Part shown: piece after piece, positions 18,130 to 33,700 of the stretch
Layout: every line of letters starts with the position of its first letter
Numbering within the stretch: position 1 is the first letter of the stretch
Source: Tubulanus polymorphus
Lineage: Eukaryota; Nemertea; Palaeonemertea; Tubulaniformes; Tubulanidae
Reading direction: 5' to 3'
NCBI RefSeq assembly: GCF_964204645.1
Contig: NC_134032.1
Location: 746,501-810,500, forward strand
DNA length: 64,000 nt
Position numbers and translations under genes: made by a program
The notes under the pieces: model-generated
Told to the model about the DNA's origin: nothing
The model's input: the letters and a program-made list of their open reading frames with translations, nothing else
Database searches by the model: none

Positions 18130-18560
18130 GAACTTTCCTTATTAGACTCACAACTGTGGAACTGGATCCTGATTTCAGAGTCAACTCTAACTCACTGTGG
18201 AAGTGGATCCTGATTTCAGAGTTAACTCTAACTCACAACTGTGGAACTGGATCCTGAGTTCAGAGTTAACTCTAACTCACAACTGTGGAACTGGATCCAG
18301 AGTTTACAGTTAACTCTAACTCACAACTGTGGAACTGGATCCTGAGTTCAGAGTTAATTCTAACTCACAACTGTAGAACTGGATCCTGAGTTCAGAGTTA
18401 ACTCTAACTCACAACTGTGAAACTGGATCCTGATTTCAGAGTTAACTCTAACTCACAACTGTGGAACTGGATCCTGAGTTCACAGTTAACTCTGACTCAC
18501 AACTGTGGAACTGGATCCTGAGTTCAGAGTTAACTCTAACTTACAACTCACAAGTTCAGA
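18130..18560 (+). repeat. ~58-bp minisatellite derived from the hairpin MITE
   Basis: About seven units of 'aactctaactcacaactgtggaactggatcctgagttcagagtt' follow the MITE at 17.94 kb. The unit is one arm of that hairpin. A sister array lies at 25,010-25,330. Confidence 0.88.
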
Positions 18561-20379: not shown

Positions 20380-23300
20380 TTAATCGTATTTATTCACATA
20401 TTCCGAGTCCTCGGTCGGTAAAGGTTGGTAGACGGCGCCACCTACACCTTGTATCGTGTCGAGTCGACTCCTGTTGTGACGTTCGCGGTCCTCGTCGCTG
20501 TTCCAGTATTGAGTCTCTCCGCTGCCGAATATCACGTAGAATAAAGCCCCGAACGCGTAGATACCGGCCGCTATATAGAATACGATCTGCCATTGACCAC
20601 GAGTTTGCTGTGAATATATAAAACATAGAATTAGGTTCAATTTATAGCTCATAACCTGCGACCCGTCTGGCAATCTGCAGCCTGGAACCTGCACCCGTTC
20701 AGATTATCTGCAGCCTGTAACCTGCACCCCGTCTGACAATCTGCAGCCTGTAACCTGCACCCCGTCTGACAATCTGCAGCCTGTAACCTGCACCCCTTCA
20801 GACAATCTGCAGCCTGTAACCTGCACCCCTTCAGACAATCTGCAGCCTGGAACCTGCACCCCTTCAGGCATGTAACTTTGCAGTGCGAAGTTAGACGGTT
20901 GTGTAGGTTTCCACAGAAATGTGGCTTTAATTTGACTCTGACCCAGTTCTACAGTTGTGTGGGTTTAATTTAGCCCAATTCCACAGTAGTGTGGGTTTAA
21001 TTTGACTCTGGATCCAGTTCCACATTGCATTGATATCCCATATATCCCCGGAGCTAGTGTGGCCAGTTTGTTTACATCAGGTGACCAGCCAAGAGATAGT
21101 GTGCTTGAGGTCGCTGCATATATCAGATGACCAGCTGCAGCCAATCAGAAGCTAGGGTTAGGGTCAGTGGTCATGTGCTTGGGGCTATTTGCATATATCA
21201 CGTGACAAGCTCCAGCCAATCAGAAGCTAGGGTTAGGGTTAGTGGTCATGTGCTTGGGGCTATTTGCATATATCAGGTGACCAGCTCCAGCCAATCAGAA
21301 GCTAGGGTTAGGGTTAGTGGTCATGTGCTTGGGGCTATTTACATATATCAGGTGACCAGCTCCAGCCAATCAGAAGCTAGGGTTAGGGTTAGCTGTTTCT
21401 AGGTGGGAGGAGGTGTATGTTTACATACAGTGACATCAGTTCATTGACAGCTCCCCCTATAGTTAGTCAATTATACATCTACAATTGACTGTGAATTGAT
21501 TTTTACAGTTGTGTGTTATATTGACATAGAATACATTTCTGTAAGCATTATTACATCTGGCTATGGATTCAATTCTACAGTTGTATGAAGTCATTTCTAT
21601 AAAGATAACAATATCTGTTATAAGGCATTTAATAGATTGACTTGACTATTGGTTTGACTATGAATTTGAAATAAGAAGCGCGTTGATAAAGTATCAAATG
21701 TTTAAGGAGGAGGGGAGGGGGTGTTAACAGGCCGAGGAGGTACAAGATGCTGTCGGCAGGTAACACAATACTTACGTCATCATTAGTGAGTAACCCAACC
21801 ACGTACGGGCCGACCATCCCGGGTATAGTAGCAAAACTATTACTGATACCCATTAGCGTTCCTGTAAAACAAAATCATCGAATTCATTTCAAGCAACAAT
21901 CTTCATATTAGTTGTCGAATAAACACTATAATCCGTGTATACTGTAAATAAATGAAGAAATCCCACACTTCGAATTTAAAATCATATGATCAAATTTATT
22001 ATTATGAAACCACAACGTTTCGGCTGTTGACTAACATCATTCCACCTGATGATGGCTTCCACCTGATGATGGCTGTTAGTCAACAGCCGAAACGTTGTGG
22101 TTTCGTAATAATAAATTTCATCATATAATTTTAAATTCGAAGTGTGGGATTTCTTCATTAATCTTCATATTATCAATTAATTCCAATAAATATTATCTCA
22201 ATTCAACTTACCTCATTAGGCTTTTTAAAGTTATTCTTTTTCATTTGAGATATATTTTCTTTGATTTATATATTATTTTTCATTGAAATAATCGATGAAT
22301 TGTTTTTTTACACAATAGATAATTACGATATCTTTAATCTATTCGATCGCTATCTTAAATATGTTTCAATCCAGGGTTTGTAGCAGTCGGACTGAGTGAA
22401 AAGTGTCACAGCACTTTATCGGGAATCCAAAGAATCTAGACAATTTTCTAAATCTAGGCACAGTTGAATTCACACATTACGACAAAATAGACCGCGATAA
22501 AACTTGTCGCTATAAATTTCCTTTGATGACATCGGGTCCAAAATGTACAAGCACTTTTCAGCAGATTTTAGGGATATTACCTGAATGTTTAGCCCTAATC
22601 AGGGCCTCTCCTAATACATTGCAAAACGAAGCACTTTTCAGACTCAGTCGAATTAGCTACAAACCCCGTCAATCAGTTTTTATACATTAAAACGTAATTA
22701 AAACAGATAAATGATTGATTATGTTTTAGCATGCGAGGGAGTTGCAGTATATAGAAGCACGGTGAAGGAAAGACAAACAGTGAGTGTAACAACAGACAAA
22801 ACCTTCTATCATTTTCAATCCAAAACTCCCGGGTTCATTTCATATGTCTTTACCCTTTCGGTGTGGTGTATAAATCAGCGATTGCCTTTTGATGTAGTTA
22901 GGCATTAGTTTTCATCTCGATTGTTAGTCCCATTAAGTGCATCTACACCTCAGTGCAGTGTATAAATTGGTGATGGATTTTTCTAGTACACCGCATCGTG
23001 GTGTATTGATATAATTAGGAACTTTATAGCTAATGAGAGATGGCAGCACCTTAGTGAAACTTAGTGAAATATTCGTAACTAACGATACACCGCACCGCAG
23101 TGTAGACGCACTGTGGTATGCCCGTTATACACCGTACTAAAGTGGAATTTTTAGTAATTTTCAAATTATCTCCAGCACTTTCGGATTATAAATGTGTCCG
23201 CAGTGAAAGGGTTAGTAGTATTTGTTATAGTAGACTCTAACTCTCTGAGACCCCGAACTAAGATTGTCAATTCATAAAAATCTTTAGCAAGTTCACGGTA

Positions 23301-24749: not shown

Positions 24750-27700
24750 ATGGTATATATAGAGGACGCAGGTACCTGCAAACACCGCCGATATATCCAG
24801 ATGGTTTATTCCGACACCGGTCAAATTAGGACCGTTAAACCCGACAGCCAGCGTTAAAATCAAAACCGCCTCCTGGGCGTTGCATCTAACAAACGACAGT
24901 CCGACTAGACATACTGCCGGCAGTCCGAGTCCTACAAATAGTGCGTGAATGTACTAGATATTAGACACTTTTAATCACTCAAACTCCCTGAATTCAGTTC
25001 CACAGTTTTGAGTTCACTGGATCCTGAGTTCAGATTTAACTCTAACTCACAACTGTGGAACTGGATCCTGAGTTCAGAGGTAACTCTAACTCACAACTGT
25101 GGAACTGGATCCTGAGTTCAGATTTAACTCAAACTCACAACTGTGGAACTGGATCCTGAGTTCACAGTTAACTCTGACTCATAACTGTGGAACTCGATCC
25201 TGAGTTCAGAGTTAACACAAACTCACAACTGTGTAACTGGATCCTGAGTTCACAGTTAATTCTGACTCACAACTGTGGAACTAGATCATCCTGAGTTCGG
25301 AGTTAACTCATTAAGTAAAACTCACAACCGTGGAACTAGATGCCAGTCTCTACGAAACAGTTTTAGTTTTAACCCTGGTTTCCGAGAATGAAATCAGAAA
25401 ATTACTTTCGAAGCTGGTTTAAGGTAATCAGTGGCAGTCGGATGGCGCGCTGGATCCGCACCTGATACGGGCGCGTGGCATACAGGTACCGGCACCTGGC
25501 ACGCGGTTAAGTACCTGCGTAAACCGCCGCGATATCTAGATGATTGACCGCAGCTGATGCTATCGTGGCACTGTTCAAACTGACGGCGAGAGTTAAAACC
25601 AAAACTGCTTCCGTAGTGTTACATTTTACGAACGAAAGTCCGATCAGACAAAAAACAGGCAGTCCGAGTCCTACAAATAGTTAAATATGTTGTTATTGTT
25701 ATGGCGCCGGTTCAGCCCATGTAGCTTGACTCCGGGCCAGTACTAAACGTGGTTTACATGCGTCTATAAAGTAGGCATCGATCTGCAGCCTGGAGCCACC
25801 CCACCTCTTCAGCCTAGGAGCAAATATCCTTCCGCTTGAGCCTGGAGCCACCCCGTCCCTTCATTCATGATGGAGCTAAGCCTTCTCTTCAGTCCGGGAT
25901 CAATTATCGCTCCCCTTTAGCCTGGAGCTACCCCTTTCCCTTTAATCAACCTGGAGCCACCCCGCTTCAGTCTGGAAGCTCCATCCAATCTTAGTCTGGA
26001 GCCAACCCTCCACTTCAGCCTGGAAGCAGCTATCACTCTTCCGCGTGGAGCCAACCCACTTAAGTCTGGAAGCTCCATCTACCCTCTTAGCCTGGAGCCA
26101 ACCCTCCTCTTCAGCCTGGAAGCAACTATCACTCCTCCGCGTGGAGCCAACCAATCGGAAGAGTGGACATTGCGATTAGTGGTCATGTGCTCGGGGCTAT
26201 TTGCATATATCAGGTGACCACCTTCAGCCAATCAGAAGTTAGGTTTAGGGTTAGCTGTTCCTAGGAGGGATGATGTGTCTGTTTACGAACAGTGACTTCA
26301 AGATCAAGGTGGCTGATCGCGAAAAAATAATCATCTGCAAAAATGTGATTGTAATCTGAGTCGAAAAAATGAGACAAGAAGGTTGTGTCTGCTTTATAGA
26401 ATAGCTAAAGAGGTTATAGTGCGTTTCTAGTTCATGCTATACCTGCGAATACGGCTGATATGTCTAAATGATTGATACTATAACCGGCCATATTGAATCC
26501 GTTCAAACCGACGGCCAGGGTCAACACTAAAACGGCGTGCTGAGAATCGCATATGATAAACGACATCCCCACGAGACAGACGCCCGGCAGACCGAGCCCT
26601 GAAAAATTCAAATTGGTTTTTGAAACGGGAAGTTCCATTCCTGTGCTCGATTCGCAGGTTTGAAGACGAAATGGCCGATTAAAACAGTGTCCCTACAGAT
26701 CAGTCATAAATTTTTAATTTTTTTCTAATTTCAAGGAGAAAATTTCAAATCCTGAGGAAGCGTCTGCGTCACTTTCATATCTCAATTACAGAAGACTCGC
26801 TCCTAAATCAGTACAGTTTATCAGTAAACCATTACTTCAGTGGTTTTGTAAACAAATTTCATTCCACATACTTTCTAAACTCAGTTAGCCTAATAATTTT
26901 GTAACCGCCCAATTGGGTTATAACAAATCCAGGTCCCAATTGTACCGATTTAGGTGTAGTCAACTGTACATCTAAAAACTAGATAAAAAATTTCTAATTG
27001 CTTTTAAATTCTCAAAATTTAATGAGTTTTAAAGGAATTTCGTGCATTTCTTTTAAATCAAAGGAGTTTCAAGCTATCTTAAACCCCATCCGGTGTCACT
27101 TTATCCGTCGAATAATATATCCCTAAAAATTTTTGCGTGCATTTTCAATTTTGTGCCGGTTTCGAATTCGATTGAGATCGTAAAGATGTGCTTTAAAAAT
27201 CATACGAAAACGGGTACACACGTAAAGCTAAGCTTCGATCGGCCGGTTTTTATTCGGCTAGTCCGGCGGTCGTATACCTGCGAATACGGCCGAAACGTCT
27301 AAATGGTTTATACTATAACCGGCCATATTGAATCCGTTTAAACCGACGGCCAGAGTCAATACTAAAACGGCGTGCTGAGAATCGCATATAATAAACGACA
27401 TCCCCACGAGGCAGATGCCCGGCAGACCGAGCCCTGAAAAATTCAAATCGTTCGTAAAATTGCGGAAGTTCCGTTCGTACGCTTGATTCGCTGATTTGAA
27501 GACACGATTGCCGATTAAACCTTCACCGCCATCTGTCATTTTCCGCACCCTTCAATACCATTATAACTTTTCCATCCCTAACTAAGGCATCAACCACATA
27601 GAACAGGCAATAGGCTGATCAAAAGTAGGTAAGCGCCGATCATCATAACCATTGACACATTGTTATCACATTGATGGTGGATCTATAACTCCCTGTTTTA

Positions 27701-30700
27701 AGCAAATGTATTTTCCTATGACAATCAGGCATAGCCTGAAGTTCGGATGAAAAATTATATTCTGAGGCCCTTACCGATTACCTAAACCCGTTCCCGAGCC
27801 AGAGAAAAAAAGGCAACAAATTTCCAGAGCGATGGTTCCCACAGTTACGTGAATTAAAAATTCCCAAGTTTTTCATGGGTGATTTTTCAGTTTTTCCAAA
27901 TGGAAATGAACGCGTACCAGTCATGCTACAGTCAATATTTCAGTGGTGACTGGGTGATAAAGGTGATCTCAAGGGAAATCTCTGAAGAAAATGACAAATG
28001 AAATGTAAAATGTAGATGAATTTCCCAAATATTTCCCAGATTAGGGGAACATTTTTCAAATTCCCAAATATTTCCAAACTGGGAATCATTATTTCAAAAT
28101 TCCCAAGTTTGTCCCCAATTTTTCCTGTTCTGCGGGAACCATGCATAGCTTTTCCGACGGCCTGGATAAAATTCCCATTTTCCAAAACTTCCGCTAGAAC
28201 CCGCGAGTCTTTTGGACGAATCTGTCGCTGCAACGACCGAAAGATTCTCGATATTGTCCGCGAAGGTTTCGACAATCGAATTCGATTTCGTAAAGACGTG
28301 CTTTAAAAATCGTACGAAAATGGGTACACGCGTAAAGCTAAGCTTCGGTCGGTCGGTTTTCAAGCTCGTGTATATGAATAGCCATAAAAGCGATAACACT
28401 AAAAACCTCATTTTCTAATGAGTAAATACTGTTAATTAACACGATCCGTTTTCGGGATCATATCCCCTCATCGGGTGAAATACAAGTGAATCAAATGATT
28501 AAACTACAGGGCTGGGTTTCATAGATGTGGAAGAAAGATAGTCCCTTGGAACATTTTGAAATTTGTCAGTTATTACCATAGTTTCTCATTGTTACTATGG
28601 TGGTTGTCATCCAGATTGACGATTTACCCCTAGGGATAACTTTAATACTCAGTCTATGAAACCGGGCCCAGGTTTATATACAACATACAGTTACAAAATT
28701 ACAAGTGCTAAATTCTAAGCTAATAACAAACCAAGTATTTAATTACAAGCTAATTATTTGAATACATTTAGGATAAAGGATGAGCCGTTTTGGAATAATT
28801 GTTGATTTAAAGAGGGTCGTTGCGCTTTAATAAAAATAAATTTAAATAAATAAATTTTTTAGTGTTAACGCTTCTATGGTTATTCAGATACTCGAACTCT
28901 CTTCCTAAGATCGTGTAGTGTACCTGCGTAGACCGCCGAGATGTCTAAATGGTTTATGCTATAACCGGCCATGATAAATCCGTTCAAACCGACGGCCGCC
29001 GATAAAACTATAACCGCCTGCTCAGAACCGCATACTATAAACGACATCCCTATAAGACACCCGGCGGCCAAATCTTGGCCTGAAAAAATTCAAGTCAGTC
29101 GAAATCAGCGTAATCACCACCTGCGGTACTTAGCCGTTGACGCTGAAATTTTTAGATTACCGCCGCCATTTTGGTTCAACAAAAAAAAAAAAACATTTAA
29201 ATACTTATACGAGATGGGGGGAAACACTTAAAATAGAAAACACCATGACAGATACTGAAAAAGATTAAAAACTGCAGCGGCCGGTTTCACAAAGCTTAAT
29301 TAACCTTTAATTATGATTAAACCACTAATCATGATTAAATTATCACAATTAAATAAAGTTATGTGTTTCACAAAATGTAATTATCTTAAATTATGATTAA
29401 GTTAAGTTCCTCTAGAGTGTCAATTAAATCGTATAATCGTTATTAACTAATCACGCTTAAGGAAATTTAATTATGATTTAGGTCCTAATTTTGATTAAAG
29501 TTGATTATGCTTTGCGAAACCGGCCCCCGAGGGATGTATCCAGTACTGGGAACTGTGGATCTAGGCCACATGGCTTGTAGCAGTACGGCTAGAGTGCAAA
29601 ACTGAGCACTTTTCTGCACTTACAGCGCGGAAAAAGTAGTGTCAACTTTAAGACTAGTCTTAAGACCTTAGACTTAACACCATCCTATTTCTATAGCTTA
29701 TCTAACAACTTAAGTTCAGTCCCAAGATTTAAGACCACTTTTGGTACTAAGTCTCGACTATGGAATTGACCTCAGGGGCCGGTTCCTCAGTTGAGACTTA
29801 AGTCCAAAAATGGTCTTAAATTTTAAGACTGGTCGTTAGATTGGCTATAGAACTAAGATGGTCTTAAATTGGTCTTAAGCCTAAGCCATGAATATGAAAC
29901 TGGGCCCAGGGGTCGGTTCCATAGTCATGACTTAGACTTAAGACCAGTCTAAGACCAACTTAGTTCTACATCCAATCTATCAACTTAAAACCAGTCTTAA
30001 GATTTAAGACAACTTTCGAACTTAAGTCACAACTGTGCAACCAGTCCAGTTGCAAAGTCGTGACTTAAGTCCAATAGTGGTCGTAAATCTTAAGACTGGT
30101 CTTAAGTTGTTAGATTGGCTACAGAACCAAAATGAGCTTAGACTGGTCTTAAGTTGTTAGATTGGTTATAGAACCATAATGAGCTTAGACTGGTCTTAAG
30201 TTGTTAGATTGGCTATAGAACCAAAATGAGTTTAGACTGGTCTTAAGTTGTTAGATTGGTTGTAGAACCATAATGAGCTTAGACTGGTCTTAAGTTGTTA
30301 GATTGGCTATAGAACCAAAATGAGTTTAGACTGGTCTTAAGTTGTTAGATTGGTTGTAGAACCATAATGAGCTTAGACTGGTCTTAAGTTGTTAGATTGG
30401 CTATAGAACCAAAATGAGTTTAGACTGGTCTTTAGTTGTTAGATTGGCTATAGAACCAAAATGAGTTTAGACTGGTTTTAAGTTGTTAGATTGGTTGTAG
30501 AACCATAATGAGCTTAGACTGGTCTTTAGTTGTTAGATTGGCTATAGAACTAAGTTGGTCTTAGACTGGTCTTAAGTTGTTAGATTGGTTATAGAACCAA
30601 AATGAGCTTAGACTGGTCTTAAGTTGTTAGATTGGTTATAGAACCAAAATGAGTTTAGACTGGTTTTAAGTTGTTAGATTGGTTATAGAACCAAAATGAG

Positions 30701-33700
30701 TTTAGACTGGTTTTAAGTTGTTAGATTGGTTATAGAACCAAAATGAGTTTAGACTGGTCTTAAGTTGTTAGATTGGTTATAGAACCAAAATGAGTTTAGA
30801 CTGGTTTTAAGTTGTTAGATTGGTTATAGAACCAAAATGAGCTTAGACTGGTCTTAAGTTGTTAGATTGGTTATAGAACTAAGTTGGTCTTAGACAGGTC
30901 TTAATTCTAAGCCATGACTATGCAACCGGTCCCTGGGGCCTTACCAAAAACGTAGCACTAGAGATAGACTCACTACAAGCCATGTAAAACACAACATCGA
31001 TGACACAAACATTCAGCGAATCCAAACGAACAAATCCTCTCCGTTTTCAATCATACCCGCGAAAACAGGCGAAAGGTCAAGGTGATTCACCATATACCCG
31101 ACCATCGCGAAGCCGTTCAACGCGACGTTCAAAACGACGAACACTAGCGCCACCTGTTGATCGCACGGGATATACCCGACCGCGATGAGGAACACGACCG
31201 GCAGGGTCAGACCTAACGTCGAATATATATCAGACAGTTATTAATATCGATGAATTCATGATCGCGAAAAACAGGGTTTGTAGTTTGTCAGACGCTTTCA
31301 CTAAAGTATCTAGGCTTCTCCGAAGGAGATGAATGTGAAATTGTAATCGGGCATCTATTTTGAAAACGACAGATTTGGCAACGTGAGGGGTGCAAGTATA
31401 ACATTAGTGGGGTTCGGGTGGTCCTCCAAACGAAATACAGGGGCTTAACTGGCCTTCATCAGGGTCTATTTTTTTGAAAATTTCATCTGGTCAAAAAGAA
31501 ATTGCAGACTTTTTGGAGAGCGCTTTTGAATTTATGACGGCCCCCGTTAAAGTAATCAGAAATGGCCGCCTATTTCAAGTTTGTCCAAAAGTATCACTTT
31601 TTCGGGAAAGTATCGACGTACCACAAACCCTGCCTTTTTCTTTTTGACGTATCATTTTAGACTGGATTTAAAGGTGGTTGTAGAATTCACCTGAAATATT
31701 TCTAGTATTGGTAATAAACATTTTCAACAATTACGATATTTCAAATTGTTTCTACTCCTCTGATTCAGAATGCTGCGTAAATTCGATGAATTTGAACACT
31801 TACCTAAAGTGTTGAATATTTTGCGTACTGTAGTCGTCGATAAGATGCCTTTAAATCGTAAATAATCGGCGATTTGTCCGGAACAAATCGCCAACACCCA
31901 GAACACTAAATACGGTACAGCCGATAGAAAACTATTCTGAAAATATACACGACATAACACGCTGTCATAGGGGGATTTATGCGGGTAGCCATCGTTTCTA
32001 GATCTGTGATGATGTCATAGGGGGATTTATAGAGGTAGCCATCGTTTCTAGATGATTCTAGATCTGTGATGATGTCATAGGGGGATTTATGGAGGTAGCC
32101 ATCGTTTCTAGATAGTTCTAGATTTGGGATGATGTCATAGGGGGATTTATGGAGGTAGCCATCGTTTCTAGATGATTCTAGATTTGTGATGATGTCATAA
32201 GGGGATTTATTATAGAGGTAGCCATCATTTCTTGATAGTTCTAGATCTGTGATGATGTCATAGGGGGATTTATGGAGGTAGCCATCATTTCTAGATAGTT
32301 CTAGATCTGTGATGATGTCATAGGGGGATTTATGGAGGTAGCCATCATTTCTAGATAGTTCTAGATCTGTGATGATGTCATAAGGGGATTTATAGAGGTA
32401 GCCATCGTTTCTAGATAGTTGTAGATCTGTGATGATGTCATAAGGGGATTTATTATAGAGGTAGCCATCATTTCTTGATAGTTCTAGATCTGTGATGATG
32501 TCATAGGGGGATTTATGGAGGTAGCCATCATTTCTAGATAGTTCTAGATCTGTGATGATGTCATAGGGGGATTTATAGAGGTAGCCATCGTTTCTAGATA
32601 GTTGTAGATCTGTGATGATGTCATAAGGGGATTTATTATAGAGGTAGCCATCATTTCTAGATAGTTGTAGATCTGTGATGATGTCATAGGGGGATTTATA
32701 GAGGTAGCCATCGTTTCTAGATAGTTGTAGATCTGTGATGATGTCATAAGGGGATTTATTATAGAGGTAGCCATCATTTCTTGATAGTTCTAGATCTGTG
32801 ATGATGTCATAGGGGGATTTATGGAGGTAGCCATCATTTCTAGATAGTTGTAGATCTGTGATGATGTCATAGGGGGATTTATTATAGAGGTAGCCATCAT
32901 TTCTAGATAGTTGTAGATCTGTGATGATGTCATAGGGGGATTATAGAGGTAGCCATCGTTTCTAGATAGTTCTAGATCTGTGATGATGTCATAAGGGGGT
33001 TTATGGAGGCCGCCATCAGTTCTGTTAATCACAAGTAGGCAAGCGGTACTGATAAATTGATGTCATAGGGAGATGTGCGAGTGCAGACATTTTTTCTTTC
33101 TGGAAGTGCGTAGAGGTTACTAGATGATGTCATAGGGGGATTTATGGAAGCAGAAATCTCTACTGTAAAGTTGTAGATCTTCATAATGATGTAGTAGGGC
33201 GATCTATGGAGGCAACCATCTTTTTTGTAGAGTTCCTTAAATGATGTCATTAGGGGGATTTTTGAAGGCAACCATCATTTTCAGAACGTATACGGGAGGT
33301 ATTTGATGATGTCATAGGGGGATAGATACTGACCTTTTTGATATCGAAATGAAGCACCTCTTTCATGTAGGTCGGGAGACAAGTCAACAGCGTATAAAAT
33401 CCCCAGTTGTTGCACATGTGCGTGACCAGTATCGCGTAATTCGGCATCGATTTGAATATATCCTTCCACGGTGGATGAGTGTACTGTGGAAATGAAAATA
33501 GATTTCAATATATCCTTCCACAGTGGATGAGTGTACTGTGGAGACAAAAATAAATTTCAATATATCCTTCCACAGTGGATGAGTATACTGTGGAAACAAA
33601 AATAGATTTCAATATATCCTTCCATGGTGGATGAGATTTAAAATCAATCTAATTTCTAGAAAAAATTCTTTAAATCAATCTTATTTCATTTTATTCAATT

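What the first reader, a model, noticed from the sequence alone, without database searches (positions are those of the whole stretch)
24776..31212. Six tandem, same-length, same-phase versions of one exon in a sialin-like transporter
Seen: six exons of exactly 156 nt, all phase 1-1, all with acceptor and donor, all open, all aligning to one ~52-residue segment ending NHLD..(P/A)V(F/Y)AG. Every other exon of the gene is single. Known: this region of SLC17 carriers forms membrane helices in the C-terminal half. Inferred: the exons are used mutually exclusively, so one gene could make six carriers that differ in one helix pair and perhaps in substrate or regulation. Since 156 is a multiple of 3, double inclusion would not cause a frameshift, so a splicing mechanism rather than decay must enforce choice. 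I know of no such array in a sialin gene.
Basis: partly seen in the sequence, partly recalled or inferred. Interest (0 to 1): 0.93.

Follow-up and report, generated by a model that had tools for sequence, protein, structure and literature searches.

The report
Six swappable exons in a transporter
A marine ribbon worm's gene for a sialin-type carrier holds six alternative copies of the exon for its substrate-contacting helix, so one gene could make six carriers; this is probable from the sequence but not yet shown in RNA.

Summary
On the minus strand, a 533-residue SLC17 (sialin-like) carrier is encoded by nine single coding exons plus six internal, tandem, homologous exons of 156 nt each, all phase 1-1 with AG/GT sites and no stops. 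Public protein P0002, "sialin-like isoform X5 [Tubulanus polymorphus]", equals the nine exons plus the fifth copy letter for letter, confirming the gene model and the likely species, a nemertean. The copies form one clade. I found no second array in this genome. Mutually exclusive splicing is the best reading but is inferred; I saw no RNA reads.

New here: the exon encodes the second half of TM9 and all of TM10. It spans the equivalent of human sialin Ser411, which contacts docked sialic acid and bound NAAG (PMC11116495, passages). The copies carry Met, Ser, Ser, Ser, Ala, Gly there; the substrate-contact His414 is kept in all six; five copies replace the usual Pro419 with Ala. A screen for docking/selector RNA pairing found nothing above shuffles. 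It is a new member of a known kind; ten paper searches listed no SLC17 case.

The parts
36948..37047 (-). coding exon e1 with start codon (residues 1-33)
   Evidence: spliced product equals P0002
36422..36621 (-). coding exon e2 (TM1 and lumenal loop)
35354..35587 (-). coding exon e3 (TM2, TM3 and most of TM4; holds R171, E174, E178, which align with human R168, E171, E175)
35155..35242 (-). coding exon e4
34207..34433 (-). coding exon e5
33334..33483 (-). coding exon e6 (TM7)
31804..31936 (-). coding exon e7 (TM8 and first half of TM9); constant upstream splice partner of the array
31057..31212 (-). alternative exon c1, 156 nt; Met at the human Ser411 position; keeps Pro419; sister to the other five
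28924..29079 (-). alternative exon c2, 156 nt; Ser at 411; Ala at 419
27278..27433 (-). alternative exon c3, 156 nt; Ser at 411; Ala at 419; young pair with c4 (93% DNA identity)
26443..26598 (-). alternative exon c4, 156 nt; Ser at 411; Ala at 419
25515..25670 (-). alternative exon c5, 156 nt; Ala at 410, 411 and 419; the copy found in public protein P0002 (isoform X5)
24776..24931 (-). alternative exon c6, 156 nt; Val at 410, Gly at 411, Ala at 419
21776..21861 (-). coding exon e9 (TM11); constant downstream splice partner of the array
20380..20607 (-). coding exon e10 (TM12, C-terminal tail, stop)

Best explanation
The locus is one SLC17 (sialin-type) carrier gene of a nemertean, very probably Tubulanus polymorphus. 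The exon for the second half of TM9 and all of TM10 was tandemly duplicated into six copies. Exon e7 is joined to exactly one of c1-c6, which is joined to e9, giving six 533-residue carriers with the same first 377 and last 104 residues. Because TM10 holds a substrate-contact residue and changes shape in the transport cycle of its relatives, choosing a copy would tune substrate preference or kinetics. Shown: gene anatomy, six open homologous exons, a single origin of the copies, the isoform with c5 in public annotation, and the spread of residues at the Ser411 position. Inferred: expression of the other five, strict one-of-six choice, and the functional effect. How the choice is enforced is unknown; it cannot rest on frameshift decay, since each copy is 156 nt.
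For: Six same-length, same-phase, open exons with splice sites. Exact match of the c5 isoform to P0002, named 'isoform X5', in a cluster of five member sequences. One clade for the six copies: 95/83 support, one change in 94% of 200 bootstrap trees. Outside the window, each of the 14 TM9-10 segments has an e3-type match of its own within about 4 kb (paired by hand), against six segments for one e3 here. On the Drosophila X chromosome only 6 of 1705 genes have such look-alike neighbouring exons that are not mutually exclusive (PMC3228551, section 13). Among the 120 listed of 2572 hits to the full-length protein, the only entry named Tubulanus is the 533-residue P0002, though proteins up to 1.75 times the query's length were admitted. 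Human Ser411 contacts docked sialic acid and bound NAAG, and mutating it to Ala attenuates sialic acid transport (PMC11116495, passages); DgoT Ser370 on TM10 hydrogen-bonds substrate (PMC6532931, passages). An AlphaFold2 model of the c5 isoform is confident across the cassette (block means 91-98) and matches sialin best.
Against: No RNA reads or junctions were seen; P0002 is one model and the other four members of its cluster are hidden from me. Pairwise dN/dS is 0.06-0.38 for the 13 of 15 pairs with finite dS, but synonymous sites are saturated or nearly so for several pairs. A per-copy count of unique changes shows an excess of silent change for c6 (P 0.0018, or 0.015 against four references) and c4 (P 0.014, from three changes) but not for c1, c2, c3 or c5; these P values are not corrected for eight tests. 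So relaxed or diversifying evolution of those copies is open. No docking/selector pairing rose above shuffles. The 5' splice sites of the copies pair with U1 no more weakly than those of several constant exons.
Confidence: 0.8

Rival explanations
1. The copies are alternative but not strictly exclusive: some transcripts carry none or two, because all lengths keep the frame.
For: 156 nt is a multiple of three, so nothing in the frame forbids skipping (by arithmetic 481 residues) or double inclusion (585 residues) (lengths). No enforcing RNA structure was detected.
Against: Skipping would delete TM10 and half of TM9, and double inclusion would add about one and a half helices; neither fits the 12-helix fold modelled for the c5 isoform (inference). 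No longer protein named Tubulanus is among the 120 listed hits.
Confidence: 0.12
2. Only one or a few copies work; the rest are decaying duplicates.
For: Lineage counts do not show constraint on c1, c2, c3 or c5 one by one. Absence of stops is not by itself significant. Five copies lack the family's usual proline at 419 and two lack the usual aromatic residue at 410.
Against: All six keep exact length, phase and splice sites and share 14 invariant residues including NHLD. Amino-acid differences are fewer than random substitution gives for 15 of 15 pairs. The copy least like human sialin, c5 (36%), is the one in the public isoform.
Confidence: 0.06
3. Several copies are spliced in series to make a longer protein.
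For: The frame would allow it.
Against: Inserting half of TM9 plus TM10 repeatedly does not fit the carrier fold (inference); no such protein named Tubulanus was listed.
Confidence: 0.02

Closest known systems
Clusters of homologous mutually exclusive exons as described by Pillmann et al. 2011 (Dscam, muscle myosin heavy chain, dynein heavy chain)
   Same: Internal neighbouring exons of the same length and frame, homologous, flanked by further exons (PMC3228551, abstract and sections 13-14 read; PMC3912159, abstract and section list read, for myosin clusters across animals).
   Different: Here the swapped part is a membrane helix of a secondary carrier; exclusive use is not shown.
Human carriers with mutually exclusive exons: SLC25A3 and SLC39A14
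   Same: An exon of a carrier is replaced by an alternative one (named in PMC5740500, passages).
   Different: Other carrier families; that these are pairs rather than larger sets is recalled.
Drosophila Mrp (ABC transporter) with tandem alternative exon arrays (recalled; the search did not list a paper on it)
   Same: A transporter with a large tandem array of alternative exons.
   Different: ABC transporter, not a major facilitator; recalled only.
Human sialin SLC17A5
   Same: Best sequence and fold match among solved structures; the Arg and two Glu of TM4 align.
   Different: Human Tyr301 of the pocket is Asn here. I did not examine the human gene's exons.

Membership tests
Cluster of mutually exclusive exons | Two or more neighbouring internal exons, flanked by further exons | tested here: met
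   Six between e7 and e9
Cluster of mutually exclusive exons | Similar length, same reading frame, conserved splice sites | tested here: met
   6 of 6 are 156 nt, phase 1-1, AG/GT
Cluster of mutually exclusive exons | Sequence homology of the exons | tested here: met
   38-96% protein identity; one clade
[quoted passage not shown]
   No RNA reads; one public isoform holds c5 alone
Docking/selector-controlled exon array (Dscam type; type recalled) | One intronic site pairing with a site beside each copy | tested here: inconclusive
   Three layouts screened; observed values reached by 3 to 11 of 20 shuffles; single species, so no covariation test
SLC17 / sialin-like carrier | Major facilitator fold, sequence closest to SLC17 | tested here: met
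   Pfam MFS_1; sialin then VGLUT best among solved structures by sequence; sialin and VGLUT2 best by fold. The nearest NCBIfam model, TIGR00894, is below its curated cut-off (500 against 626 bits)
SLC17 / sialin-like carrier | TM4 Arg and Glu residues (human R168, E171, E175) | tested here: met
   R171, E174, E178 align
Sialic-acid transporter in the strict sense | Transport of sialic acid; pocket residues H298, Y301, S411 | tested here: inconclusive
   His kept, Tyr301 is Asn, 411 is Ser in only three of six copies; transport not testable

The most novel reading that the evidence does not exclude
One gene makes six carriers with different substrates by swapping the TM10 helix that touches the substrate. 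The copies sample residues (Ser, Ala, Gly, Met) that elsewhere differ between sialin-like genes, so splicing in one nemertean gene does what gene duplication does in other animals, with cell-type-specific choice of copy.
Probability: 0.4. Interest if true: 0.78.

Novelty: new member of a known kind. Interest (0 to 1): 0.6.

Why it matters
If used one at a time, the copies are a natural mutagenesis series of one helix of an SLC17 carrier: the same protein with Met, Ser, Ala or Gly at a residue that contacts substrate in human sialin, with or without a proline that most relatives keep. Expressing the six would test how TM10 sets substrate choice and coupling in a family that includes the vesicular glutamate transporters. 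It would also extend large exon-choice arrays to a major facilitator carrier.

Tried and rejected
Docking/selector RNA pairing: 24-nt windows (step 6) of the first array intron, and of the last one without its first 200 nt, against 350-nt flanks upstream of c2-c6 or downstream of c1-c5, with 20 dinucleotide shuffles per layout. The worst-of-five energy was reached by 10, 3 and 8 of 20 shuffles and the mean-of-five by 11, 5 and 7 of 20. No signal; window and flank sizes were my choice and one species gives no covariation. Weak 5' splice sites as an explanation: rejected, since U1 pairing energies of the copies (-6.5 to -7.2) lie among those of the constant exons (-5.2 to -12.4).

My own errors, corrected: one search had the bounds of c2-c5 shifted by three bases (mended); one search placed e1 and e7 wrongly, so the proteins it printed are wrong at those two exons (mended; one search uses the right bounds).

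Conservation in other animals: a cassette-only search with c6 (residues 376-432) had 97 candidates and none at E 0.001, probably because the piece is short. Lingula anatina sialin P0001 (692 aa) looked like a double-cassette protein at first but repeats a whole C-terminal block, not one cassette. P0095 (unnamed source) also has Ala at 419 but is only 50% identical. The DNA of other nemerteans could not be searched here.

Second array in the same genome: three segments on contig C1 looked like one but have three e3-type exons of their own, so they are separate genes.

Papers: ten searches. Searches joined SLC17 or sialin with exon terms, 19, 39 and 56 transporters with exclusive exons, 63 nemerteans with exclusive splicing (0 papers). 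I saw only the listings (at most 20 each) for most of the papers found, and nothing in them reports alternative tandem exons in an SLC17 gene. Most subscription journals are not held.

Full report
Observation. A script read of the minus strand and an exon model give a gene of nine single coding exons, e1-e7, e9 and e10, between 37047 and 20380, with six extra exons c1-c6 between e7 and e9. All six are 156 nt, phase 1-1, preceded by AG, followed by GT and open. Spliced with any one copy, the gene encodes 533 residues. tblastn of every exon against the window finds six copies of this exon; below E 0.1 the other nine exons hit only themselves, save two partial copies of the start of e6 in a minisatellite.

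What gene it is. The best solved relatives are human sialin (E 3.4e-151) and then vesicular glutamate transporter 2. The public protein P0002, 'sialin-like isoform X5 [Tubulanus polymorphus]', is identical to the model with c5 over 533 of 533 residues; the other five isoforms match it at 501 to 513 residues. Its cluster holds five member sequences, of which I can see only the representative. That the others are cassette isoforms is inference.

Only array found in the genome. A 125-residue query across the array finds 40 matches at E 0.01, eight of them in the window (six copies, e7, e9). c1 alone finds 20 at E 1 and c6 alone 15, six of each in the window; the tool calls such counts lower bounds. 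Comparing by hand, each of the 14 segments outside the window has an e3-type match of its own within about 4 kb, so they look like one segment per gene. I displayed five paralogue segments (three on C1, one each on C2 and C11). Read by eye, the C2 and C11 genes have an AG acceptor at the same place as c1-c6; the C2 gene reads on past the place where c1-c6 end, and the C1 genes end a little earlier.

Evolution. In a tree of 51 rows (six copies and 45 homologous segments) the copies form one group with 95/83 support; c1 is sister to the rest (99/97), c5 pairs with c6 (99/93) and c3 with c4 (99/80). With only 54 columns many other forks are unresolved. So the copies most likely arose by duplication in this gene's own lineage. 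Introns beside c3 and c4 share short diverged blocks (86 nt at 77%, 89 nt at 89%), which fits an older tandem duplication better than an assembly error. Pairwise dN/dS is 0.06 to 0.38 for the 13 of 15 pairs with finite dS. Random substitution at the observed divergence would leave a copy without stops in 15 to 72% of simulations, so openness alone is weak, but it would change more residues than observed in 15 of 15 pairs. One-lineage counts show an excess of silent change for c6 and c4 only, uncorrected.

What the exon does in the protein. It covers residues 378-429. In an AlphaFold2 model of P0002 made with 45 homologues (mean pLDDT 86.9; blocks over the cassette 91-98), TM9 is helix 367-389, TM10 begins at 396 and breaks at 416-419, and the next helix runs 420-455. 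The cassette is therefore the second half of TM9, the loop and TM10; I place its end near the TM10/TM11 border by inference. The model's best fold matches are sialin and VGLUT2 structures.

Substrate-contact residue. By the alignment and the count, human Ser411 corresponds to residue 418, inside the break of TM10. In human sialin Ser411 makes hydrophilic contacts with docked sialic acid and with NAAG in a cryo-EM structure, and mutating His298, Tyr301 or Ser411 to alanine attenuates transport; His414 alanine is among the mutants that cut NAAG transport by 50-90% (PMC11116495, passages). A later paper also lists S411 in the pocket (PMC13207226, passages). Ser370 of TM10 in bacterial DgoT hydrogen-bonds galactonate, and TM10 is kinked in the inward state and continuous in the outward one (PMC6532931, passages). 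Here the copies have Met, Ser, Ser, Ser, Ala, Gly at 411 and His at 414 in 6 of 6. In 182 segments from 180 of 201 fetched homologues (21 lacked my motif and were dropped; P0002 itself is counted), position 411 is Asn 90, Ser 43, Gly 13, Gln 13, Ala 8, Met 3 and others 12; position 419 is Pro in 165; position 410 is aromatic in 174. So 411 varies between sialin-like genes, while the loss of Pro419 in five copies and of the aromatic 410 in c5 and c6 is unusual. Human Tyr301 is Asn in the constant part, so sialic acid need not be the substrate.

Splicing. Introns between copies are 583 to 1977 nt and all sites are GT-AG, so neither tight spacing nor incompatible splice-site types forces exclusion; that these are the usual alternatives is recalled. 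Each copy is a multiple of three, so decay of frameshifted messages cannot enforce choice. My screen for RNA pairing was negative. The mechanism is open.

Known or new. Same-length, same-frame, homologous neighbouring internal exons are an accepted signature of mutually exclusive clusters; only 6 of 1705 genes on the fly X chromosome have such exons that are not exclusive (PMC3228551, abstract and sections 13 and 14). Six of the twelve human gene families whose fly and worm orthologues also have such exon swaps are ion transporters (PMC9741552, abstract and passages). SLC25A3 and SLC39A14 are human carriers with exclusive exons (PMC5740500, passages). Ten paper searches listed no SLC17 case (see Tried and rejected). 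I file it as a new member of a known kind, with one membership feature, exactly one copy per transcript, untested.

Noticed in passing
window 33449-33635 (-): A 52-bp minisatellite of 3.6 copies directly upstream of and into exon e6 repeats the e6 acceptor and the first bases of the exon: a second exact acceptor copy would start an exon at 33535, and a one-base variant lies one unit further up. 52 is not a multiple of three, so use of a decoy would shift the frame.
   Followed up: partly
window 31996-33023 (-): The intron between e6 and e7 holds a 60/63-bp minisatellite of about 17 copies; a frame on the gene's strand is open for 344 codons across most of it, as the unit lengths are mostly multiples of three. 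Related units recur at 34463-34973.
   Followed up: no
window 21948-22162: A 215-bp stretch that matches its own reverse complement at 86.5% lies about 90 bp upstream of exon e9 in the intron after c6.
   Followed up: no
window 18146-18548 and 25016-25309: The same 44-bp minisatellite occurs in the intron between c5 and c6 and again downstream of the gene.
   Followed up: no
P0001 (Lingula anatina sialin, 692 aa): The model holds a C-terminal block from TM8 to the tail twice in one protein, which looks like a merged tandem gene or alternative 3' ends.
   Followed up: no
window 37739-38188 (-): A 150-codon open frame just upstream of the gene matches no Pfam family at E 0.001.
   Followed up: partly
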